DNA of 64,000 nt from Fundidesulfovibrio terrae (GTDB lineage Bacteria; Desulfobacterota; Desulfovibrionia; Desulfovibrionales; Desulfovibrionaceae), in assembly GCF_022808915.1 (NCBI RefSeq), contig NZ_JAKZFS010000002.1:744001-808000 (forward strand). The letters are read 5' to 3'. The position numbers were made by a program, and so were the translations under genes. The notes below the pieces were generated by a model, which was not told the DNA's origin, searched no databases, and saw only the letters and a program-made list of their open reading frames with translations. Of this stretch, positions 7,414 to 22,645 are shown one piece after another; the first letter of the stretch is position 1, and each line of letters begins with the position of its first letter.

Positions 7414-8865
7414 TCAGAACTTGTACTGCAGCCCGACGACAGCCAGGAAGGCTTCGCCGCTCTTGGCCTGGTTCACGAAGTTGCGTCCCCACACGGAGCG
7501 CTCGAACTCGCCGTGGGACCAGCCCACGTTGGCCATGAGGGCCAGGTTGTCGTAGATGGCGTAGGTGTTGTCGAGGTTAACGGCCACCACGTACTCGTTG
7601 ACGGTCAGGTCGCGGCCCATCTGGAAGAACCCGCCTACGCCCAGGATTTCGTTGGCGGTGCGCAAGGCGCTGCTGGAGTTGTTGCCGTGGGCGTAGGCGG
7701 CGGTGAGGCGGTGGGTCAGGTCCTTCAGGAAGCTGACCTTGTTGAGCGAGGCGGTGAAGCCCCAGGCGCCCACGGGATTGACGCCCATGGTGCTGGCCAC
7801 GAAGGCCTGGTCGGAGTCGAAGAGCATGGAGGTGCTGGCTCCCCAGGCGGGCACGAGCTGGGGCAGGCGCTCGGAGCCGTTGCGCAGGGAACCGTCCTCG
7901 CCGGTGGACCACCAGAAGGACACCTGGGGGGTGACGGAGTCGAAGCCGGTATACTCGGCCGCAACGTCCAGGAACAGGCCGCCACGACGGTTCTTGGCCC
8001 TGTCGGAGCCGTTGCCTTCGCCGTAGATGACGTCGGCGTAGAACTTGAAGGGGTCGAGAGCGGTCACTTCCAGGGCGGCGCCGGTCCACCAGTAGACATT
8101 CTGGCCGTTGCGGCTGCCGGTGGGGTCGATGGCGAACTGCCCGGCCGAGAAGAGGTTTGTGGCCAGGGTGCTGTTGTAGGACCCGGCTCCGCCGACGCTG
8201 GTTCCGGCGTAGTCGGCGGCGCGGCCGGCCACGGCCAGCATGGCCCAGGGGGTGGCGCTCACTCCTTCCATGGTGATCGGCAGGCTCAGGTAGTAGGCGT
8301 CGAACTCGTCGGGGACCTGCTTCGTGGTGGTGTCGAAATCCTTGTTGGTGTCCAGCAGGCGCAGGAAGGCGCCCTGGACGGCGAAGACGTCCTTGACCAC
8401 CGGAATGCTGACCACTGCCGCCGCCACTTCGGTGTCCAGGATGATGGAACTGCCGCCAAAGAAGGTGCTGTGGGCCACGGTGAAGGGCTGGCGGCCGATG
8501 GTGAACTCCACGTCGGTGCCGGGCCACTTGAACTGGAGGAAGGCCTGGTAGACGTCCACGGAGACGGCCGGGTTGTCCACGGTCATGGTGCCATGGCCCC
8601 AGGCGGCGTCGTTGACCCGGATGCCCAGGCGGAACTTGAGCTCCTCGCCCGCGATGAAGTCGGTGCGCAGGCGGAAGCGCTCCCAGACGGTCATGGGATC
8701 GGCGGTCTGGGTGCCGTCGCCGCTCCATCCGGTGTAGTTGCGCTTTTGGAACCAGTTGGCGTGGATGCGGACGTCACCGGCCATCTTGACGTCGGTGTCG
8801 GCTTGCGCGGCGGAAGCCGCAAGGGACATGGCGGCCAGAAGAACCAGGGCCAGAAGGCGTTTCAT
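7414..8865 (-). CDS. Outer membrane homotrimeric-type porin (paralogue 1)
   Basis: A 483-aa outer membrane beta-barrel. The start at MKRLLALVLLAAM is set by GAGGAG upstream and by a clear signal peptide cut after ASAAQA. Alternating hydrophobic strands such as FRLRTDFIAGEELKFRLGIR and YVVAVNLDNTYAIYD, and the terminal GLQYKF with last residue Phe, are typical of BAM-assembled porins. It is closely similar along its whole length to the next upstream gene, and both proteins are exactly 483 aa (shared blocks: DNPAVSV/DNPAVSI, DTNKDFDTTTKQVPDEFD, STGEDGS). The family forms the abundant general porins of Desulfovibrio. It has its own terminator and a candidate iron-responsive promoter. Confidence 0.92.
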   Translation of the reverse strand: MKRLLALVLLAAMSLAASAAQADTDVKMAGDVRIHANWFQKRNYTGWSGDGTQTADPMTVWERFRLRTDFIAGEELKFRLGIRVNDAAWGHGTMTVDNPAVSVDVYQAFLQFKWPGTDVEFTIGRQPFTVAHSTFFGGSSIILDTEVAAAVVSIPVVKDVFAVQGAFLRLLDTNKDFDTTTKQVPDEFDAYYLSLPITMEGVSATPWAMLAVAGRAADYAGTSVGGAGSYNSTLATNLFSAGQFAIDPTGSRNGQNVYWWTGAALEVTALDPFKFYADVIYGEGNGSDRAKNRRGGLFLDVAAEYTGFDSVTPQVSFWWSTGEDGSLRNGSERLPQLVPAWGASTSMLFDSDQAFVASTMGVNPVGAWGFTASLNKVSFLKDLTHRLTAAYAHGNNSSSALRTANEILGVGGFFQMGRDLTVNEYVVAVNLDNTYAIYDNLALMANVGWSHGEFERSVWGRNFVNQAKSGEAFLAVVGLQYKF

Positions 8866-8979
8866 GTTATCTCCTCGCTTGCAGTAGAGAGTTGAGCCCG
8901 TGACGCGTCCAGTTGGGCGGAAACCCGCGCTGACGGGGCCTCCGGCGCCTCCTGGGATGAATGGGGCGTCGATGGGGAG

Positions 8980-9008
8980 GGATAAATGAAACTGATTCTC
9001 ATAGTCAA
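8980..9008 (-). promoter_or_regulatory. Candidate promoter of porin 1 with a Fur-like operator in the spacer
   Basis: On the minus strand TTGACT (9008-9003) is separated by 16-17 bases from TTTATC/TTATCC. The spacer (9003-8985) reads TATGAGAATCAGTTTCATT, which matches the classical Fur palindrome AATGAGAATGATTCTCATT at 15 of 19 positions by hand count. A regulator bound there would block the promoter. Neither the start site nor Fur binding is shown. Confidence 0.45.
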
Positions 9009-9069
9009 ATTGAGTTGTCGACAATCGTTACTCGCATAGAACGGGACGGGATTTCCGGCGATTGGACAC

Positions 9070-9101
9070 AAAAAAAGCGGCCGGGGCAAGCCCCGGCCGC
9101 A
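9070..9101 (-). terminator. Terminator of the second porin gene
   Basis: A GCGGCCGGGGC / GCCCCGGCCGC stem with a two-base loop is followed on the minus strand by a run of seven T, 23 bases after the stop of the 9124-10575 gene. It separates the two porin transcripts. Confidence 0.9.
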
Positions 9102-9123
9102 AGGAAGGCAGGTAATCCGCAGA

Positions 9124-10575
9124 CTAGAACTTGTACTGCAGACCGAAGGCGACCTTCCAGGTGTCGCCGTCGTTGGCGCGGTTCACGAAGCGGCGGCCCC
9201 ACACGGACTTCTCGAAGGAGCCGTGGGCCCAACCGGTCTCCACGATCAGAGCCAGGTTCTGGTAGATGTTGTACTGGTTGTCGAAGTTGATGCCCATGAC
9301 GTACTCGTTGGTGGTCAGGTCACGGCCCATCATCACGTACTGGTTGGGGCCGGTGCCGGTGAGCAGGTTGGCCGTGCGCAGAGCGCGAGCGGAGTTGGTG
9401 CCGCGGGCATAGGTGAAGGCCAGGCGGTGGGTCAGATCCTGCATGAAGCTGATCTTGTCCAGGGCGAACACGAGGCCCCAGCTGCCGATGGAGCTGGTGG
9501 GCATGCCGCCGAAGTTGAAGTCCTGGTTGCCGAACATGAAGGAGTTCGAGGGACCCCAGTAGTTCACGACGGCGGGCAGGCGCTCGGAGCCGTTACGGGT
9601 GGAGCCGTCTTCACCGGTGGAGTACCAGAAGGTCAGCTGGGGGGTGACGGCGTCGAAGCCGGTGTACTCGGCGGCGACGTCGAAGAACAGGCCAGCGCGC
9701 TTGCTCTTGCCGCGGTCGTTTCCGTTGCCCTCGCCGTACACGATGTCGGCGTAGAACTTGAAGGGATCAAGCGCGGTGACGGCGAAGGAGGAGCCGACCC
9801 ACCAGAACACGTTCTGGGAGTTCTTCAGGCCGACGGGAGCAGCGTAGGTGCCGGCGGAGAACAGGTAGGTGGCCAGGGTCTCGTTGGTGTTGGGTCCGCC
9901 GTTGCCGACGAAGGTGCCGTAGTTGGCGTTGCGGCCGGCCACGGCGATCATGCCCCAGGGGGTGGCGCTGAAGCCGTCCAGGGTGATGGGCAGGGTCAGC
10001 AGGTAGCCGTCGAACTCGTCGGGGACCTGCTTGGTGGTGGTGTCGAAGTCCTTGTTGGTGTCGAGGAAGCGGATGAAGCCGCCCACGACCTTCAGCTGGT
10101 CAACGACGGGGATGGCCACCAGCGCGGCGGCGGCGCGGGTGCCACCGAACACGGGGTTGGAGCCCAGCCAGTCGGCGGACATGGGCAGGTCGACGTTCTG
10201 CAGGCCCACGGTGAACTCAACCTGGGTGTTGGGCCACTTGAACTGCATGAAGGCCTGGTAGACCTGGATGGAGACGGCCGGGTTGTCCACGGTGAAGGTG
10301 CCGGCGCCCCAAGGAGCGTCGTTCACGCGGATGCCCAGGCGGAACTTCAGGCCTTCGTTGGCGATGAAGTCGGAACGCAGGCGGAAGCGCTCCCAGATGG
10401 TCAGAGAGTCGTAGGTCTGAGAGCCGGCGGCATTCCAACCGGTGTAGTTGTACTTGGACCAGTAGTTGCCGTAGACGCGGGCGTCGCCGGTCATCTTGAC
10501 CTCGGTGGCAGCCGAAGCGGCCACGGCGCCGAAGGCCATGCTGATGAGCAGGGCCAGAGCCAGAATGCGTTTCAT
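9124..10575 (-). CDS. Outer membrane homotrimeric-type porin (paralogue 2)
   Basis: A 483-aa beta-barrel porin, paralogous to the downstream gene. A very strong AGGAGGAGGA precedes the start MKRILALALLISM; the signal peptide ends near AVAASA. The mature protein opens ATEVKMTGDARVYGNYW, repeats the blocks of its paralogue (NYTGWNAAGSQT, DTNKDFDTTTKQVPDEFD, STGEDGSTRNGSERLP) and ends FGLQYKF. The strong ribosome site, long leader and own terminator suggest the more abundantly made of the pair. Divergence is concentrated in the stretches between barrel strands, as expected for surface loops. General diffusion of small solutes is the likely job; selectivity cannot be read. Confidence 0.92.
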   Translation of the reverse strand: MKRILALALLISMAFGAVAASAATEVKMTGDARVYGNYWSKYNYTGWNAAGSQTYDSLTIWERFRLRSDFIANEGLKFRLGIRVNDAPWGAGTFTVDNPAVSIQVYQAFMQFKWPNTQVEFTVGLQNVDLPMSADWLGSNPVFGGTRAAAALVAIPVVDQLKVVGGFIRFLDTNKDFDTTTKQVPDEFDGYLLTLPITLDGFSATPWGMIAVAGRNANYGTFVGNGGPNTNETLATYLFSAGTYAAPVGLKNSQNVFWWVGSSFAVTALDPFKFYADIVYGEGNGNDRGKSKRAGLFFDVAAEYTGFDAVTPQLTFWYSTGEDGSTRNGSERLPAVVNYWGPSNSFMFGNQDFNFGGMPTSSIGSWGLVFALDKISFMQDLTHRLAFTYARGTNSARALRTANLLTGTGPNQYVMMGRDLTTNEYVMGINFDNQYNIYQNLALIVETGWAHGSFEKSVWGRRFVNRANDGDTWKVAFGLQYKF

Positions 10576-18034: not shown

Positions 18035-19759
18035 GTGCCCAAGACCTGGCGCCCCCGCGCCGTCATCCCCCATCCCTCAAGCCTGGCGGACTGGGCCGCC
18101 AAGCTCTGCGTTTCGCCCCGGTTGGCCGGGCTGCTCTGGGACCGGGGGCTCTCGACCATCGAGGCGATGGACGTTTTCCTCTGCCCCGGGCTGCGCCACC
18201 TCATGAGCCCGTCCTGCATCCCCGGCCTCGAGGAGGTCGCTCGGGCCGTGGCCAGGGTGCTGACCTCCGGCGGCAGGCTCGCCGTCTGGGGCGACTACGA
18301 CGTGGACGGCGTCACGTCCACCGCCCTCATGACCGATTTTTTCGCGCGGCGTGGCTTCTCCTCCAGTTCCTACATCCCGGCCCGGCTCGAGGAAGGCTAC
18401 GGCCTGAGCGTGGCCGGCCTGGAGAAACTGGCCGCGTCCGGCATCAACATGGTGCTCACCGTGGACTGCGGCATCAGCGCCGTGCAGGAGGCCCGGCGCG
18501 CCCGCGAACTGGGCCTCGAACTGGTGGTCACCGACCACCACCTGCCCGGGGAGGAGCTCCCGGACGCCACGGCCATCGCCAACCCCAAGCTGGCCCCGGA
18601 CGGCCCCGGCCGCGATCTGGCGGGCGTGGGCGTGGCCTTCTTTCTGGCCGCCGCGCTCAACCGCATGCTTCCCGGCGAGCCCATCGACATCCGGCAGTTC
18701 CTGGACCTCACGGCCATGGGCACCCTGGCCGACGTGGTCAGCCTCACCGGTCAGAACCGCATCCTGGTGAAAAACGGGCTTTTGCTGCTGGCCGATGCGG
18801 CCCGCCCGGGCATCTTCGCCCTCAAGGAGGTCGCCGGGCATTACCCCAAGGCTCCGCTCGAGGCCAGCCAGGTCACGTTCGGGCTGGCCCCGCGCATCAA
18901 CGCGGCCGGACGCCTGGGACGCGCCGACGAGGCCCTGGCCCTGCTGATGGCCCCGGACCTGGAAACCGCGCGCCCCCTGGCCAAAACCCTGGACGAGCTT
19001 AACGCCAGGCGCCGTCAGGAGGAGGACTCCATATCTCGCGAGGCCCTGGAGCAGGCCCGGCTCCAGTCCGGGCAGCCGGCCATGGTGCTGCACGAGCCCC
19101 ACTGGCACCAGGGGGTCATCGGTATCGTGGCCTCGCGCGTGGTGGACGCCCACTATCGGCCCACGCTCGTCATCACGGACGACAACGGCAAGCTCAAGGG
19201 CTCCGGCCGCTCCATCCCGGAAGTGGACCTGCACGCGGCCATCGCCGCCTGCCAGAACCTGCTCCTGGGCTTCGGCGGACACCACCAAGCCGCCGGACTG
19301 AGCCTCGCGCCCGGCAATCTGGAGCCCCTGCGCGCCGCCTTCCGCAAGGCCGTCCAGGAGCAGTTGGGCGACACCAGCCCGACGCCGACCCTGAAGCTGG
19401 ACGGGGAGATGTCCTTCGCGGAAATCCACCATGAACTGCTCAAGGAGCTGGAACTGCTCGGGCCGTTCGGTTGCGGCAATCCGGAGCCGGTGTTCTGTTC
19501 GGGGATGCTGGACGTGAAGGCCCGGCGGGTGTTCGGGGCCAACCACGTGCTGCTCGAAGTGCGGGATCCCGACGCCGGGGTGACGCTCAGGGCCAAGGCC
19601 TGGCGCCTGGCCGGAGAGATCGGGCCGGAAATGCAGGGGCGCAAGCTCAGGCTGGCCTTCAGCCCCAGGCTGGACACGTACAACGGTATCGCCAGCGTGG
19701 AACTGCGCGTGAAGGACTGGGACAAGGGCGAGGAACGGGGGCGGACGGGGAAGAGCTGA
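18035..19759 (+). CDS. recJ: Single-stranded-DNA-specific exonuclease RecJ
   Basis: A 574-aa 5'-3' exonuclease of recombination and mismatch repair. The start is GTG (VPKTWRPRAV) with AAGGAG six bases upstream. DHH motifs are intact: DYDVDGVTST (Asp87 onward), LTVDCGISA, VTDHHLPGE and LAGVGVAFFLAAAL; the DHHA1 part has GSGRSIPEVDLHAAI and FGGHHQAAGL; the C-terminal OB-like part has LLGPFGCGNPEPVF. Length is normal for the family. It ends the plus-strand run; downstream lies a broken transposase. Confidence 0.95.
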   Translation: MPKTWRPRAVIPHPSSLADWAAKLCVSPRLAGLLWDRGLSTIEAMDVFLCPGLRHLMSPSCIPGLEEVARAVARVLTSGGRLAVWGDYDVDGVTSTALMTDFFARRGFSSSSYIPARLEEGYGLSVAGLEKLAASGINMVLTVDCGISAVQEARRARELGLELVVTDHHLPGEELPDATAIANPKLAPDGPGRDLAGVGVAFFLAAALNRMLPGEPIDIRQFLDLTAMGTLADVVSLTGQNRILVKNGLLLLADAARPGIFALKEVAGHYPKAPLEASQVTFGLAPRINAAGRLGRADEALALLMAPDLETARPLAKTLDELNARRRQEEDSISREALEQARLQSGQPAMVLHEPHWHQGVIGIVASRVVDAHYRPTLVITDDNGKLKGSGRSIPEVDLHAAIAACQNLLLGFGGHHQAAGLSLAPGNLEPLRAAFRKAVQEQLGDTSPTPTLKLDGEMSFAEIHHELLKELELLGPFGCGNPEPVFCSGMLDVKARRVFGANHVLLEVRDPDAGVTLRAKAWRLAGEIGPEMQGRKLRLAFSPRLDTYNGIASVELRVKDWDKGEERGRTGKS

Positions 19760-19829
19760 AGAGCGAGGAGGGGGCCTTCAGGCTTTTCCGTGGATAGCTG
19801 GTCGGCTATGGTCCTCCCTGGAGGAAGCC

Positions 19830-19970
19830 ATGAAGGACATCGACCTGTATTCGCGGATTCCCGGCCTGACCGAGCCATGATTTGTGGAAGCGGTTGAACT
19901 GAACACGGCGGAAGGTCGGGTGGACATTCACGTGGAGTACGGCACCGGTGTCCGGTAGACCTGCCCCACC
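19830..19970 (+). pseudogene. Transposase N-terminal remnant (ISL3-like)
   Basis: After a good ribosome site (GGAGGAAGCC) the frame reads MKDIDLYSRIPGLTEP, stop, FVEAVELNTAEGRVDIHVEY, GTGVR, stop, TCPT. This resembles the N-terminus of ISL3-type transposases, where Trp is expected at both stop positions (TGG changed to TGA and to TAG). The frame is otherwise unbroken for 47 codons and then loses similarity in an A-run at 19971. The matching C-terminal end lies at 21063-21152, beyond the AT-rich gene. The family assignment is from memory of the motif, not a search. Confidence 0.65.
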
Positions 19971-20003
19971 AAAAAAAACACTAAAGTATAAGGAAGTAAT
20001 CGA

Positions 20004-21059
20004 ATGCCGGAAGATCAGATCACACCTGGCGAACTGCCTGAGGGGCTGACAATTCCGGCCAACCTTCAATTCTCCGCCAGAGGTTTTTCAGACGAAGATT
20101 ATGCGAGGGAGATGATAAATAAGCTGCATTCGATCCTTAGCGTAATTAGCCAATGGATAGACCTATCGAATCTTGATGGCGTAACTCTTGCTTTTGACTA
20201 CGATGAAGCACTTGCCGAACTGGATCGTGGGTATGAGCCAAGCAAAATACTTGTTGCGACAAAGGATGTGTCCCTTGGTATTGCAATGGCTCCGTGCGTC
20301 ATACGCGATGGCAACATCAAGACCCATATTGTCCTGAACACAAATTACATACTCGGTCTTCTTGAGGAGCCTGGGCAGGAAACTGAGTGTTTTTACAAGT
20401 CTCTTTATGTTGTTGCGCACGAATGCGCGCACGTGGAGGTGACAGCAGCATTCGACAACTGCTTCCCAGGCGTTATTCTGCAGAAGGTCAATACCAGTAT
20501 CCTCGATGGCATGCGGCGGGATGTAATTTGGGCAGCGTGGCAAGAATATGCCGCTTGCCGCATATCTTGCCCGATCGGGGATGATCCAAGCGATGGTCAT
20601 CTTGAGACCTTGGTCAAAGTGCTTGAAAACACAAGGAGCCAATGCTTTGAGATGATAAAAGCCTATCGTATTCATTCCGAGGTGGACAAAGTAGTGTTGG
20701 AAACCTACGGAAAACTCGGCGATCTTCTGAAATCCTCATCGTATTACTTGGGTACTGTCGCTTCACATGAGATACCAGAGACGCACCCGGATGCCTTATT
20801 AAAAATTGACGAATTTGACTGGTTTTGCCCGTATTATGATCGTCTCATAGATGCACAGCAGATCCTCTGGGATCAATTTGGCAAGTGGGATGGTCAAGAC
20901 AAATTCGAGCTGTTGGGTGATATTTTGGAAGACATGGCTGAAAGCATCGGAATTGAAGCAGAACGACTAAGTAACGAACGCATTTACTTCAAAATACCAT
21001 ATCGTAAAGAGAGTATGCCAGACAACGATCTTGGAACCCATGGTGCGGGTATATCCTAG
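20004..21059 (+). CDS. Putative zinc metallopeptidase-like protein of unknown family, AT-rich
   Basis: A 351-aa protein, not assigned to a family. It has HECAH (His139, Glu140, His143) inside LYVVAHECAHVE, and a possible third ligand Glu181 in AWQEYAACR, 38 residues on, as in gluzincin-type HExxH proteases. There is no signal peptide or membrane segment. Seven or more Cys are present. Base composition and codon use are plainly AT-richer than every neighbour (many AAT, ATA, TTA codons), a sign of recent transfer. It sits between the N- and C-terminal remnants of one transposase. No antitoxin or partner gene is visible. A protease acting on a regulator or toxin is possible but not shown. Confidence 0.7.
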   Translation: MPEDQITPGELPEGLTIPANLQFSARGFSDEDYAREMINKLHSILSVISQWIDLSNLDGVTLAFDYDEALAELDRGYEPSKILVATKDVSLGIAMAPCVIRDGNIKTHIVLNTNYILGLLEEPGQETECFYKSLYVVAHECAHVEVTAAFDNCFPGVILQKVNTSILDGMRRDVIWAAWQEYAACRISCPIGDDPSDGHLETLVKVLENTRSQCFEMIKAYRIHSEVDKVVLETYGKLGDLLKSSSYYLGTVASHEIPETHPDALLKIDEFDWFCPYYDRLIDAQQILWDQFGKWDGQDKFELLGDILEDMAESIGIEAERLSNERIYFKIPYRKESMPDNDLGTHGAGIS

Positions 21060-21062
21060 GTC

Positions 21063-21152
21063 TTTGAGAGGATGACCTGCGGCTATAGAAACCGGGAGCA
21101 CTTCAATGTCGCCATCTACCTCTACGGCGTCCTTGACCTCTACCCGGCCTAA
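21063..21152 (+). pseudogene. Transposase C-terminal remnant (ISL3-like)
   Basis: The frame FERMTCGYRNREHFNVAIYL, YGVLDLYPA, stop resembles the last 30 residues of ISL3-type transposases (GYRNxExFxxAIYF...LDLYP). It begins four bases after the stop of the AT-rich gene. Together with 19830-19970 it suggests the middle of a transposase has been replaced by that gene. Confidence 0.55.
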
Positions 21153-21190
21153 TACGTGACAAGAGCTACCCAGGGAAAACCCGGAAGAGC

Positions 21191-21245
21191 CGGGAGGAGA
21201 ACGCCTCCGGCGGCCAAAGGGACCAGTCCCTTTGGAATCCCCTTT
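21191..21245 (+). repeat. Intergenic foldback repeat, copy 2
   Basis: CGGGAGGAGAACGCCTCCGG is followed by CGGCCAAAGGGAC, CA and GTCCCTTTGGAATCCCC. The arms CCAAAGGGAC (21214-21223) and GTCCCTTTGG (21226-21235) are perfectly complementary. Core and flanks match the copies at 2803-2858 and 43595-43725. Confidence 0.8.
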
Positions 21246-21328
21246 CGTTTCGCATCGACCGATGCGGGGAAGGCCAAGGTGAGCCACGGGCTGCCGTGTC
21301 CGGGATGGAGGCAGCCCATGGCGTCGAT

Positions 21329-22645
21329 TTACTTTTTCCGGAGTTTATCCATCTGCTTCTTGGCCTTGCCCGCCAACGAGTCGTCAGGGCCCACGAGGGC
21401 GATGACGCGCTCGTAGGCCTTCAGGGCCTTTTCGCGTTCCCCGGCGGATTCGGAAACCTCCGCCAGTGAGAACCACGTGCCGGGGCTTTGCGGGGCGTAG
21501 CGAACTGCGCGCTCAAGCCTGGCTATGGCGTCGGCCATGTTGCCCTTGTTGGCGAGGATCTGGGCGTAGGTTTCGAGGAAAGCGGGATTCTCCGGTTGCA
21601 GATCCACCGCCTTGGACGCGTATCCGGCCGCCGTGTTCAGGTCGCCCTTGGAGGCGAGAATGGTCCAGGCCAGGTTGTTGAGCGCCCAGGGATTGTTCGG
21701 CACCACCTCCACGGCCAGGGCGAAGTTTTGCTTGGCCTTCTCCAGATTGCCCTTCTCAAGATAGAGGACCCCGGAAAAGAAGAGGGCCCCCGCGTGCCGG
21801 GGATCGAGTCCCAGGAGCTGCTCGAAGTCCGCCAGGGCTTCCTGCTTTTTGCCCATGGCCAGGTTGGCCTGCGCCTTGCCGTAGACGGCGTCGATGGATT
21901 TCTCATCCAGCGAGAGCGCCTGATCGTAGAAGGTCACCGCCTGGTAATAGCGCTTGGAGTTGGCGTAAGCCGCCGCCAGCGCAAGACGGGGCTTGGGGTC
22001 TTGCGGTGCCAGGTTCATCGCTTTCTGGAGCATCCGGATGGCGTCGTCCGTCTTGCCCTGGCTCGCCAGCAGGCTGCCCAGCCCGAAAGCGGCTCCGGCG
22101 TTGTTGGGGTTCTGGTCCACCGCTTCCCTGAAGAGCTTTTCGGCTTCGGCCGCGTTCTCCTTGGACCCCGCCAGCAGCGTCGCCAGCTCGAGCTTGGCGG
22201 CCAGGGCGTCCGGGTTGAGAGAGACGGCCTTGCGCAGGGAGGCTTCGGCCTTGGCGGTATCCTTGGTCGCGAAATAGAAACGGCCAAGGGCCAGATGGAC
22301 GTAGGATGAGCCGGGCGCCAGGGCCAGCGCGGCGTCCAGCTGCTTCTTGGCGGCGTCCGTATCCTGGCGCTTGAACGCGACTTCGGCCAATCCCAGCAGC
22401 GGGTCTGGACTTTTGGGATCCTGCTCGGCGGCTTTGGCGAACTGTTCGGCGGCATCGTCCAGCCGGTTCTGCTCGAATGCCGCGAGACCCTTGTCGAAGG
22501 CGTTTTGGGGGCCGGAGAAGGACGTTTGCCCCGGCAGATCGCCGGGGCGGGTGGGGGTGAACATGGTGGCGTGCGACACCGAGCCGGAGGCCACGAAGAG
22601 GAGCAGCAGGCAGAGCGCGTGGAGTACGTGGATTCCTGGTCTCAT
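21329..22645 (-). CDS. Exported TPR-repeat protein
   Basis: A 438-aa protein with a signal peptide (MRPGIHVLHALCLLLLFVAS...SHA) and then about ten TPRs covering nearly all of the mature part: for example AEASLRKAVSLNPDALAAKL, ADFEQLLGLDPRHAGALFF, YASKAVDLQPENPAFLETYA and ALKAYERVIAL. A GAGGCG site precedes the ATG. It lies directly downstream of a PEP-CTERM protein gene on the same strand, with a 12-bp hairpin in the 76-base gap. TPR proteins such as PrsT are known near PEP-CTERM systems, so a role in envelope assembly or export is plausible; this one is not shown to be PrsT. Confidence 0.78.
   Translation of the reverse strand: MRPGIHVLHALCLLLLFVASGSVSHATMFTPTRPGDLPGQTSFSGPQNAFDKGLAAFEQNRLDDAAEQFAKAAEQDPKSPDPLLGLAEVAFKRQDTDAAKKQLDAALALAPGSSYVHLALGRFYFATKDTAKAEASLRKAVSLNPDALAAKLELATLLAGSKENAAEAEKLFREAVDQNPNNAGAAFGLGSLLASQGKTDDAIRMLQKAMNLAPQDPKPRLALAAAYANSKRYYQAVTFYDQALSLDEKSIDAVYGKAQANLAMGKKQEALADFEQLLGLDPRHAGALFFSGVLYLEKGNLEKAKQNFALAVEVVPNNPWALNNLAWTILASKGDLNTAAGYASKAVDLQPENPAFLETYAQILANKGNMADAIARLERAVRYAPQSPGTWFSLAEVSESAGEREKALKAYERVIALVGPDDSLAGKAKKQMDKLRKK

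What the first reader, a model, noticed from the sequence alone, without database searches (positions are those of the whole stretch)
19830..21152. AT-rich metallopeptidase-like gene nested between the two ends of one broken transposase
Codons 1-47 of an ISL3-like transposase (19830-19970) and its last 30 codons (21063-21152) flank a complete AT-rich gene with its own start and stop. Both in-frame stops in the N-terminal piece are at positions where Trp (TGG) would be expected. The transposase middle (several hundred residues by family size) is missing and replaced by 1.06 kb of foreign-looking coding DNA. This suggests a cargo gene captured inside an insertion sequence, now fixed behind recJ.
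Basis: partly seen in the sequence, partly recalled or inferred. Interest (0 to 1): 0.72.

Follow-up and report, generated by a model that had tools for sequence, protein, structure and literature searches.

The report
Transposon shell carrying a peptidase gene
A small jumping element in this bacterium has lost the middle of its own jumping enzyme and carries a foreign peptidase-like gene in its place, and a related genome holds two more such elements with other genes inside, which suggests that these empty shells sometimes pick up and move single genes.

Summary
Window 19772-21191 (1420 bp) has the two ends of one ISL3-family insertion sequence: 28-bp terminal inverted repeats (22/28 identical), transposase codons 1-47 with two Trp-to-stop changes, and transposase positions 381-409 plus stop. 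Codons 48-380 are gone. In their place sits a complete 351-codon gene with a HExxH...E motif. The gene belongs to phrog_11743 (function unknown); its best relatives (63-67% identity) lie on rhodobacterial plasmids and contigs. A genome of the same genus (G006) has two further transposase-less units with the same kind of ends: one holds a hybrid histidine kinase between perfect 8-bp target duplications, the other an FAD/Rieske oxidoreductase block (duplication 7/8). A 91%-identical copy of that block lies in another genome of the genus without ISL3 sequence within 1.5 kb. This fits the known class of mobile insertion cassettes: shells moved in trans, with cargo in place of the transposase. Weak points: the window copy is unique, its target duplication is only 7/8 after a one-base shift (3/8 in register), and no ISL3 transposase was found in its genome, so it is probably stranded now. 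Peptidase activity is predicted, not shown.

The parts
19763..19770 (.). possible left target duplication GCGAGGAG (needs one extra G at the left end of the element)
   Evidence: 7 of 8 match to 21192-21199 after a one-base shift; 3 of 8 without it; purine-rich sites reach 7 of 8 by chance in 3.4% of trials, any sites in 0.3%
19772..19799 (+). left terminal inverted repeat of the ISL3 shell
   Evidence: 22/28 identical to the right repeat; matches the ends of multi-copy intact elements in G014, G083 and G042; pattern hit with 1 mismatch
19830..19970 (+). transposase codons 1-47, stops at codons 17 and 43 (both Trp in the intact G014 protein)
   Evidence: tblastn 78.7% identity to the G014 transposase
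19971..21062 (+). segment that replaces transposase codons 48-380 (about 1092 bp)
   Evidence: no transposase similarity inside ('midaa 0')
20004..21059 (+). cargo gene, 351 aa, predicted gluzincin-type zinc metallopeptidase, phrog_11743
   Evidence: DNA similarity to rhodobacterial relatives ends at 21024, and the last 11 codons differ
20418..20432 (+). HECAH motif (residues 139-143)
   Evidence: H139, E140, H143 invariant in 37 of 37 aligned sequences
20544..20546 (+). E181, candidate third metal ligand
   Evidence: invariant in 37 of 37; in the helix after the HExxH helix in the model
21063..21152 (+). transposase C-terminal piece, 29 residues and stop
   Evidence: positions 381-409 of the G014 transposase, 69% identity
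21164..21191 (-). right terminal inverted repeat of the ISL3 shell
   Evidence: (2 mismatches)
21192..21199 (.). possible right target duplication GGGAGGAG

Best explanation
It is a transposase-less ISL3 shell of the mobile insertion cassette kind. An ISL3 element lost the middle of its transposase gene and kept about 199 bp of its left end and 129 bp of its right end. A foreign gene for a HExxH metallopeptidase-like protein came to lie between the two stubs. An ISL3 transposase supplied by another copy in the cell then moved the whole 1.42-kb unit by recognising its inverted repeats, and it landed behind recJ. Shown: the anatomy, the family of both ends, the foreign gene, two more cargo units with the same kind of ends in a genome of the same genus, and a shell-free copy of one of those cargoes in a third genome. 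Inferred: movement in trans, transposition of the window unit as a whole, and peptidase activity. The unit is now probably stranded, because no ISL3 transposase was found in its genome (96.8% complete).
For: Both flanks match one transposase and both terminal repeats are present. Intact relatives are 1327-1329 bp; 5 of 10 intact copies scored by script have exact 8-bp target duplications, the other 5 match at 0 to 5 of 8 (an 11th, L037, is cut by a contig end). Comparable cargo units: G006:C37 (L147:1289-3776), IRs 41 and 44 of 45 (both were in the matrix's training set), perfect duplication CAAAAAAG, cargo a PAS/HisKA/HATPase/receiver kinase; G006:C39 (L076:1358-3827), duplication ACAGTTTT/ACAATTTT, transposase residues 1-31 and 340-359 on either side of the cargo. 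The latter's cargo is 91% identical over 2146 columns to G003:C29, where the 1.5-kb flanks show no similarity to the L076 stubs and a phage-family integrase gene lies about 0.45 kb away. Deletion derivatives without cargo recur and keep similar stubs, e.g. G151, G211, G247, G240, G062, G004. Of 148 other related genomes searched for the cargo, 147 lack it; the one match (G045) is 26% identical with a stop.
Against: The window unit is single-copy, and no other genome searched shows this cargo in this shell. Its target duplication is not exact (3/8 in register, 7/8 shifted; 3.4% chance among purine-rich sites). No ISL3 transposase domain is found in its own genome (0 matches), and a transposase search there finds only the stub. 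Only 3 cargo units were recognised among 247 family genomes, all in the window's genus. I fetched 20 more stretches around mostly single ends and found no further cargo pair. The 60 genomes of other families of the order gave only single, unpaired hits. Ends at contig edges cannot be paired, and the pattern searches list only the first places of a genome.
Confidence: 0.6

Rival explanations
1. In-place replacement: an ordinary ISL3 copy landed behind recJ, and later its middle was exchanged for a foreign DNA piece by illegitimate recombination. The peptidase gene never moved as part of a cassette.
For: Single copy and inexact target duplication, with two stops in the N-terminal stub. The cargo segment ends abruptly, about 33 bp before the ATG and at the stop codon; I saw no repeats of its own there (by eye).
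Against: It needs a separate accident at each of three places. The kinase unit in G006 has perfect 8-bp duplications around the whole unit, which shows that such units can transpose as a whole.
Confidence: 0.25
2. Residue of a compound transposon: two same-orientation ISL3 copies flanked the gene and their inner parts were deleted, leaving one outer left end and one outer right end.
For: It would explain one N-terminal and one C-terminal stub on either side of a complete gene. The G006:C39 unit has the same layout.
Against: No inner ends remain at any of the three units (one search reports 0 inner IRs), and I recognised no compound precursor among the ends listed for 247 genomes.
Confidence: 0.12
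3. The flanks are chance or unrelated transposase scraps.
For: None found.
Against: Both match one 411-aa transposase in the right order and strand, and the element's own inverted repeats lie at the expected distances.
Confidence: 0.01

Closest known systems
Mobile insertion cassettes (MIC231A1 of Bacillus cereus, mic-qnrD/qnrS2 elements; passages of PMC3913671 read; also MICs with TnXax1 ends in Xanthomonas, passages of PMC4619425 read)
   Same: Terminal inverted repeats of a transposable element, cargo gene in place of a transposase, target duplication; MIC231A1 also carries a peptidase gene (adp) and is stated to be movable in trans by the IS231A transposase.
   Different: Here the ends are of ISL3 type and carry readable N- and C-terminal transposase stubs; movement in trans is not tested.
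ISL3-family elements with passenger genes (ISPst2, ISPpu12; passages of PMC6305408 and PMC4133298 read)
   Same: Same family and extra genes inside; the ISPst2 copies tabulated in PMC6305408 have inverted repeats that start with GG and 8-bp direct repeats, one of them CAAAAAAG, the same eight bases as at the G006 kinase unit.
   Different: Those keep a transposase gene and carry the passengers beside it; here the passenger replaces the middle of the transposase gene.
MIC of Propionibacterium freudenreichii with ISPfr11 ends (passages of PMC2909200 read)
   Same: Transposase-less unit with IS ends and one gene of unknown function.
   Different: The family of ISPfr11 is not stated in the passages seen (the genome has IS3, ISL3, IS30 and IS481), so it could be an earlier ISL3-type case.
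MITE-like deletion derivatives of the same ISL3 group (G151, G211, G247, G240, G062)
   Same: Both ends kept, most of the transposase gene gone.
   Different: 172-491 bp, no cargo.
phrog_11743
   Same: The cargo matches this phage-protein family at 2.9e-72 over 317 residues.
   Different: PHROGs lists the family as of unknown function.

Membership tests
ISL3 insertion sequence (remnant ends) | transposase of ISL3 type | tested here: met
   Both stubs match the G014 411-aa transposase. The stubs themselves give no Pfam hit; PF01610 (DDE_Tnp_ISL3) finds L011 and L015 of G004, whose N termini are 68-70% identical to the stub.
ISL3 insertion sequence (remnant ends) | terminal inverted repeats starting with GG | tested here: met
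   22/28 identical repeats ending at 19772 and 21191
ISL3 insertion sequence (remnant ends) | 8-bp target duplication | tested here: inconclusive
   3/8 in register, 7/8 after a one-base shift, 3.4% chance level among purine-rich sites
Mobile insertion cassette | IS ends bracketing a non-transposase gene, with no transposase gene inside | tested here: met
Mobile insertion cassette | target duplication around the whole unit | tested here: inconclusive
   for the window; met for the sister unit L147
Mobile insertion cassette | movement in trans by a matching transposase | not testable with these tools
   needs a transposition assay; no ISL3 transposase found in the same genome
Gluzincin-type zinc metallopeptidase (clan MA) | HExxH motif and downstream Glu ligand conserved in the family | tested here: met
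   H139, E140, H143, E181 invariant in 37 of 37; that E181 is a ligand is inferred
Gluzincin-type zinc metallopeptidase (clan MA) | similar fold to a solved member | tested here: not met
   Model with mean pLDDT 91 has no PDB match at E<=0.001 (best 0.19). Among viral models the best three named ones are phage proteins annotated lethal factor, peptidase and M34 endopeptidase at E 2e-3 to 2e-2, none below 0.001. It is therefore called peptidase-like only.
phrog_11743 | profile match over the length of the protein | tested here: met
   2.9e-72, residues 17-333

The most novel reading that the evidence does not exclude
In this genus, worn-out ISL3 copies act as a recurrent gene-capture device. 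Their ends trap single genes or small operons from the host, plasmids or phages and move them as cassettes whenever an intact ISL3 copy is present. The peptidase-like cargo is an undescribed phage-defence protein that spreads as a single-gene cargo of plasmids, phages and such shells.
Probability: 0.15. Interest if true: 0.7.

Novelty: new member of a known kind. Interest (0 to 1): 0.42.

Why it matters
It shows that transposase-less cassettes, described for IS231, Tn3-type ends and quinolone-resistance genes, also form from ISL3 elements, with three unrelated cargoes in one bacterial genus. The G003/G006 pair gives a view of the same gene block without and with the shell, which makes capture testable. 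The cargo also points to a conserved, uncharacterised HExxH protein family found on conjugative plasmids and in phages, in several loci beside defence genes.

Tried and rejected
The 10.8-kb pair of ends in G259 looked like a large cassette, but it is a Tn3-family transposon (990-aa Tn3 transposase, resolvase, TetR and HlyD-type genes by Pfam) nested in an ISL3 copy near residues 18-24. The third inverted repeat in G211:C62 had no convincing partner and no significant transposase stub and was not counted. In L157 (G151) a pair 4.8 kb apart encloses parts of a transposase and was taken as two separate remnants. Pfam, NCBIfam and PADLOC name nothing for the cargo at a credible score. The solved-structure sequence search gave rows with E 0.07 or worse only. 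A sigma-70 scan found no promoter-like site upstream of the cargo; its one site lies inside the gene and counts are at shuffle level. A scan of viral contigs with the single protein found no relatives, while the alignment found 6. Whether the kinase cassette recurs elsewhere: 105 of 119 genomes match its DNA, apart from G006 itself at best 77% and over the kinase half. The FAD/Rieske block matches 5 of 119 genomes, of which G042, G083 and G152 only by short scraps.

Full report
What is there. The window is G000:C2:744001-808000 of a 3.9-Mb genome in 7 contigs, 96.8% complete. Between recJ (18035-19759; DHH, DHHA1 and RecJ_OB domains) and a TPR gene on the other strand (21329-22645) lies a 1420-bp unit, 19772-21191. 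Its left part is a 28-bp inverted repeat and transposase codons 1-47; its right part is transposase positions 381-409, a stop and the matching inverted repeat. An intact 411-aa transposase from a related genome (G014) matches both stubs, 79% and 69% identical, in the right order and strand. The inverted repeats are 22 of 28 identical. A pattern of this end type, up to 2 mismatches, has exactly these two matches in the whole genome; it matches 42 of 247 genomes of the family, the same pattern read backwards 8 of 247 (the 8 by my count of the rows).

Family of the ends. Intact copies were found in G014, G083, G042 and G295, and single copies elsewhere. The G014 and G083 copies are 1327-1328 bp long. 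The left ends start with GGCTCTTCCG or GGTCCTTCCG there and with GGTTCTTCCG in G042. In 5 of 10 intact copies scored by script there are exact 8-bp target duplications; the other 5 match at 0 to 5 of 8. PF01610 (DDE_Tnp_ISL3) is found in 3 of 7 genomes of the genus, including the G004 copies that match our stubs, but not in the window's genome (0 matches). The end models R1 and R2 also find the window's ends (E 5.4e-28 and 2.5e-26), but the window's sequences were part of those models, so I rest the claim on tblastn and on the pattern.

The cargo. ORF 20004-21059 has G+C 0.469 against 0.654 for the window. Of 148 other related genomes, the 6 of the same genus included, only one (G045) has a match, 26% identical with a stop. 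Relatives occur in 32 plasmid records, 18 of them typed conjugative, one phage record, 60 loci in bacterial genomes and 6 viral contigs. The best, 63-67% identical, carry rhodobacterial names (two with the order Rhodobacterales in their taxonomy line; the others are so placed from recall). DNA similarity runs from 20030 to at most 21024; the upstream region and the last 11 codons are not shared. H139, E140, H143 and E181 are invariant in 37 of 37 aligned sequences. The AlphaFold model is good (mean pLDDT 91) but has no significant solved relative. The nearest named viral models are phage proteins annotated as metallopeptidases, at E 2e-3 to 2e-2. I therefore call it peptidase-like. The ORF is open over 351 codons while the 47-codon stub beside it has two stops. 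This is suggestive of selection on the cargo, but the stub could have decayed before capture.

Is it a mobile cassette? I modelled both ends and searched 247 genomes of the family, then searched the short end pattern, fetched candidate stretches and paired ends by hand and by script. Besides intact copies and small deletion derivatives (172-844 bp, no cargo), three units hold other genes in place of the transposase, all in this genus. (1) The window. (2) G006:C37, 2488 bp: a hybrid histidine kinase between nearly perfect ends and perfect 8-bp duplications CAAAAAAG. (3) G006:C39, 2470 bp: transposase residues 1-31, then a cargo block, then residues 340-359 and the right end; duplication 7 of 8. 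The cargo of unit 3, L076:1507-3648, is 91% identical to G003:C29:302074-304210. In G003 the block encodes a 515-aa FAD oxidoreductase with a Rieske domain and a DUF5661 protein; in G006 the oxidoreductase reads as two ORFs of 364 and 174 aa, so it is disrupted there. In G003 a phage-family integrase gene lies about 0.45 kb away and the 1.5-kb flanks show no similarity to the stubs of unit 3. So a gene block of the genus exists both outside and inside a shell. Which came first is inferred.

Limits. The window's own target duplication is weak: 3 of 8 in register, 7 of 8 if one extra G is allowed at the left end; purine-rich sites reach that in 3.4% of random trials, any sites in 0.3%. There is no second copy, and no partner transposase was found in the genome. 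RecJ was found in all 7 genomes of the genus. Behind it, 5 of the 6 others have readable sequence and show no element in the 600 bases printed; the sixth is cut by a contig end. The TPR gene was not found in those loci and the gene order differs, so no empty site can be read. 'Fixed' is untested.

Literature. Passages of PMC3913671 describe mobile insertion cassettes as inverted repeats without a transposase gene, with MIC231A1 moved in trans by IS231A and carrying a peptidase gene; passages of PMC4619425 describe them with Tn3-type ends. Passages of PMC6305408 and PMC4133298 describe ISL3 elements that carry passengers beside a transposase. Passages of PMC2909200 mention a cassette with ISPfr11 ends whose IS family is not stated there. 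Searches for ISL3 with mobile insertion cassette (4 papers, 2 of them opened), for ISL3 with MITE and passenger genes (4 papers, 1 opened) and for ISL3 family with non-autonomous and in trans (1 paper, opened) showed no cassette stated to be ISL3-based in the passages I read; the general search on cassettes held 100 papers, of which 20 were listed and 2 opened from there. The library lacks most subscription journals, so I do not claim it is unpublished.

Verdict. A real, decayed ISL3 shell with a foreign single-gene cargo, best filed with mobile insertion cassettes. The class is known; this is a new member with readable transposase stubs, in a genus where at least three such units exist.

Noticed in passing
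window 21203-21266 (matches reach 21174-21278): A dispersed repeat of about 65 bp (core GCCTCCGGCGGCCAAAGGGACCAGTCCCTTTGGAATCCCC, palindromic centre) lies right after the element; at least 40 further matches in the same genome (196 first-look candidates, 40 scored). Its role is unknown; it resembles REP-type repeats (recalled, not tested).
   Followed up: partly
loci L018-L022 and L081-L145 around the cargo relatives: Neighbours of the cargo family include many defence genes: 93 neighbour ORFs from 41 loci match 296 PADLOC models, including GajA and GajB in 2 members each, SAVED effectors in 2, RmrA in 3 and capH/capP in 3. The 91 control ORFs match 47 models, among them mad2 in 3, mad8 in 2 and GajA and GajB in 1 each. 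The control is from other taxa and many models are redundant, so this is a lead only.
   Followed up: partly
L148:2500-11900 (G259): A Tn3-family transposon with a TetR regulator, HlyD-type efflux gene and resolvase is nested inside an ISL3 transposase gene.
   Followed up: partly
L147:1289-3776 and L197:605-1840 (G006:C37): The kinase cassette lies about 1.9 kb downstream of a phage-family integrase gene, so it may sit inside an integrative element.
   Followed up: partly
L150 and L151 (G247, G240): Nearly the same 397-bp ISL3 deletion derivative with very similar flanking DNA in two genomes of one genus: probably an inherited insertion, not a recent transposition (by eye).
   Followed up: no
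L010:1456-2349 (G045): The only relative of the cargo among 148 other related genomes is 26% identical and broken by a stop.
   Followed up: no
window 7416-10482: Two neighbouring paralogous stretches about 1.7 kb apart (74-84% identical pieces).
   Followed up: no
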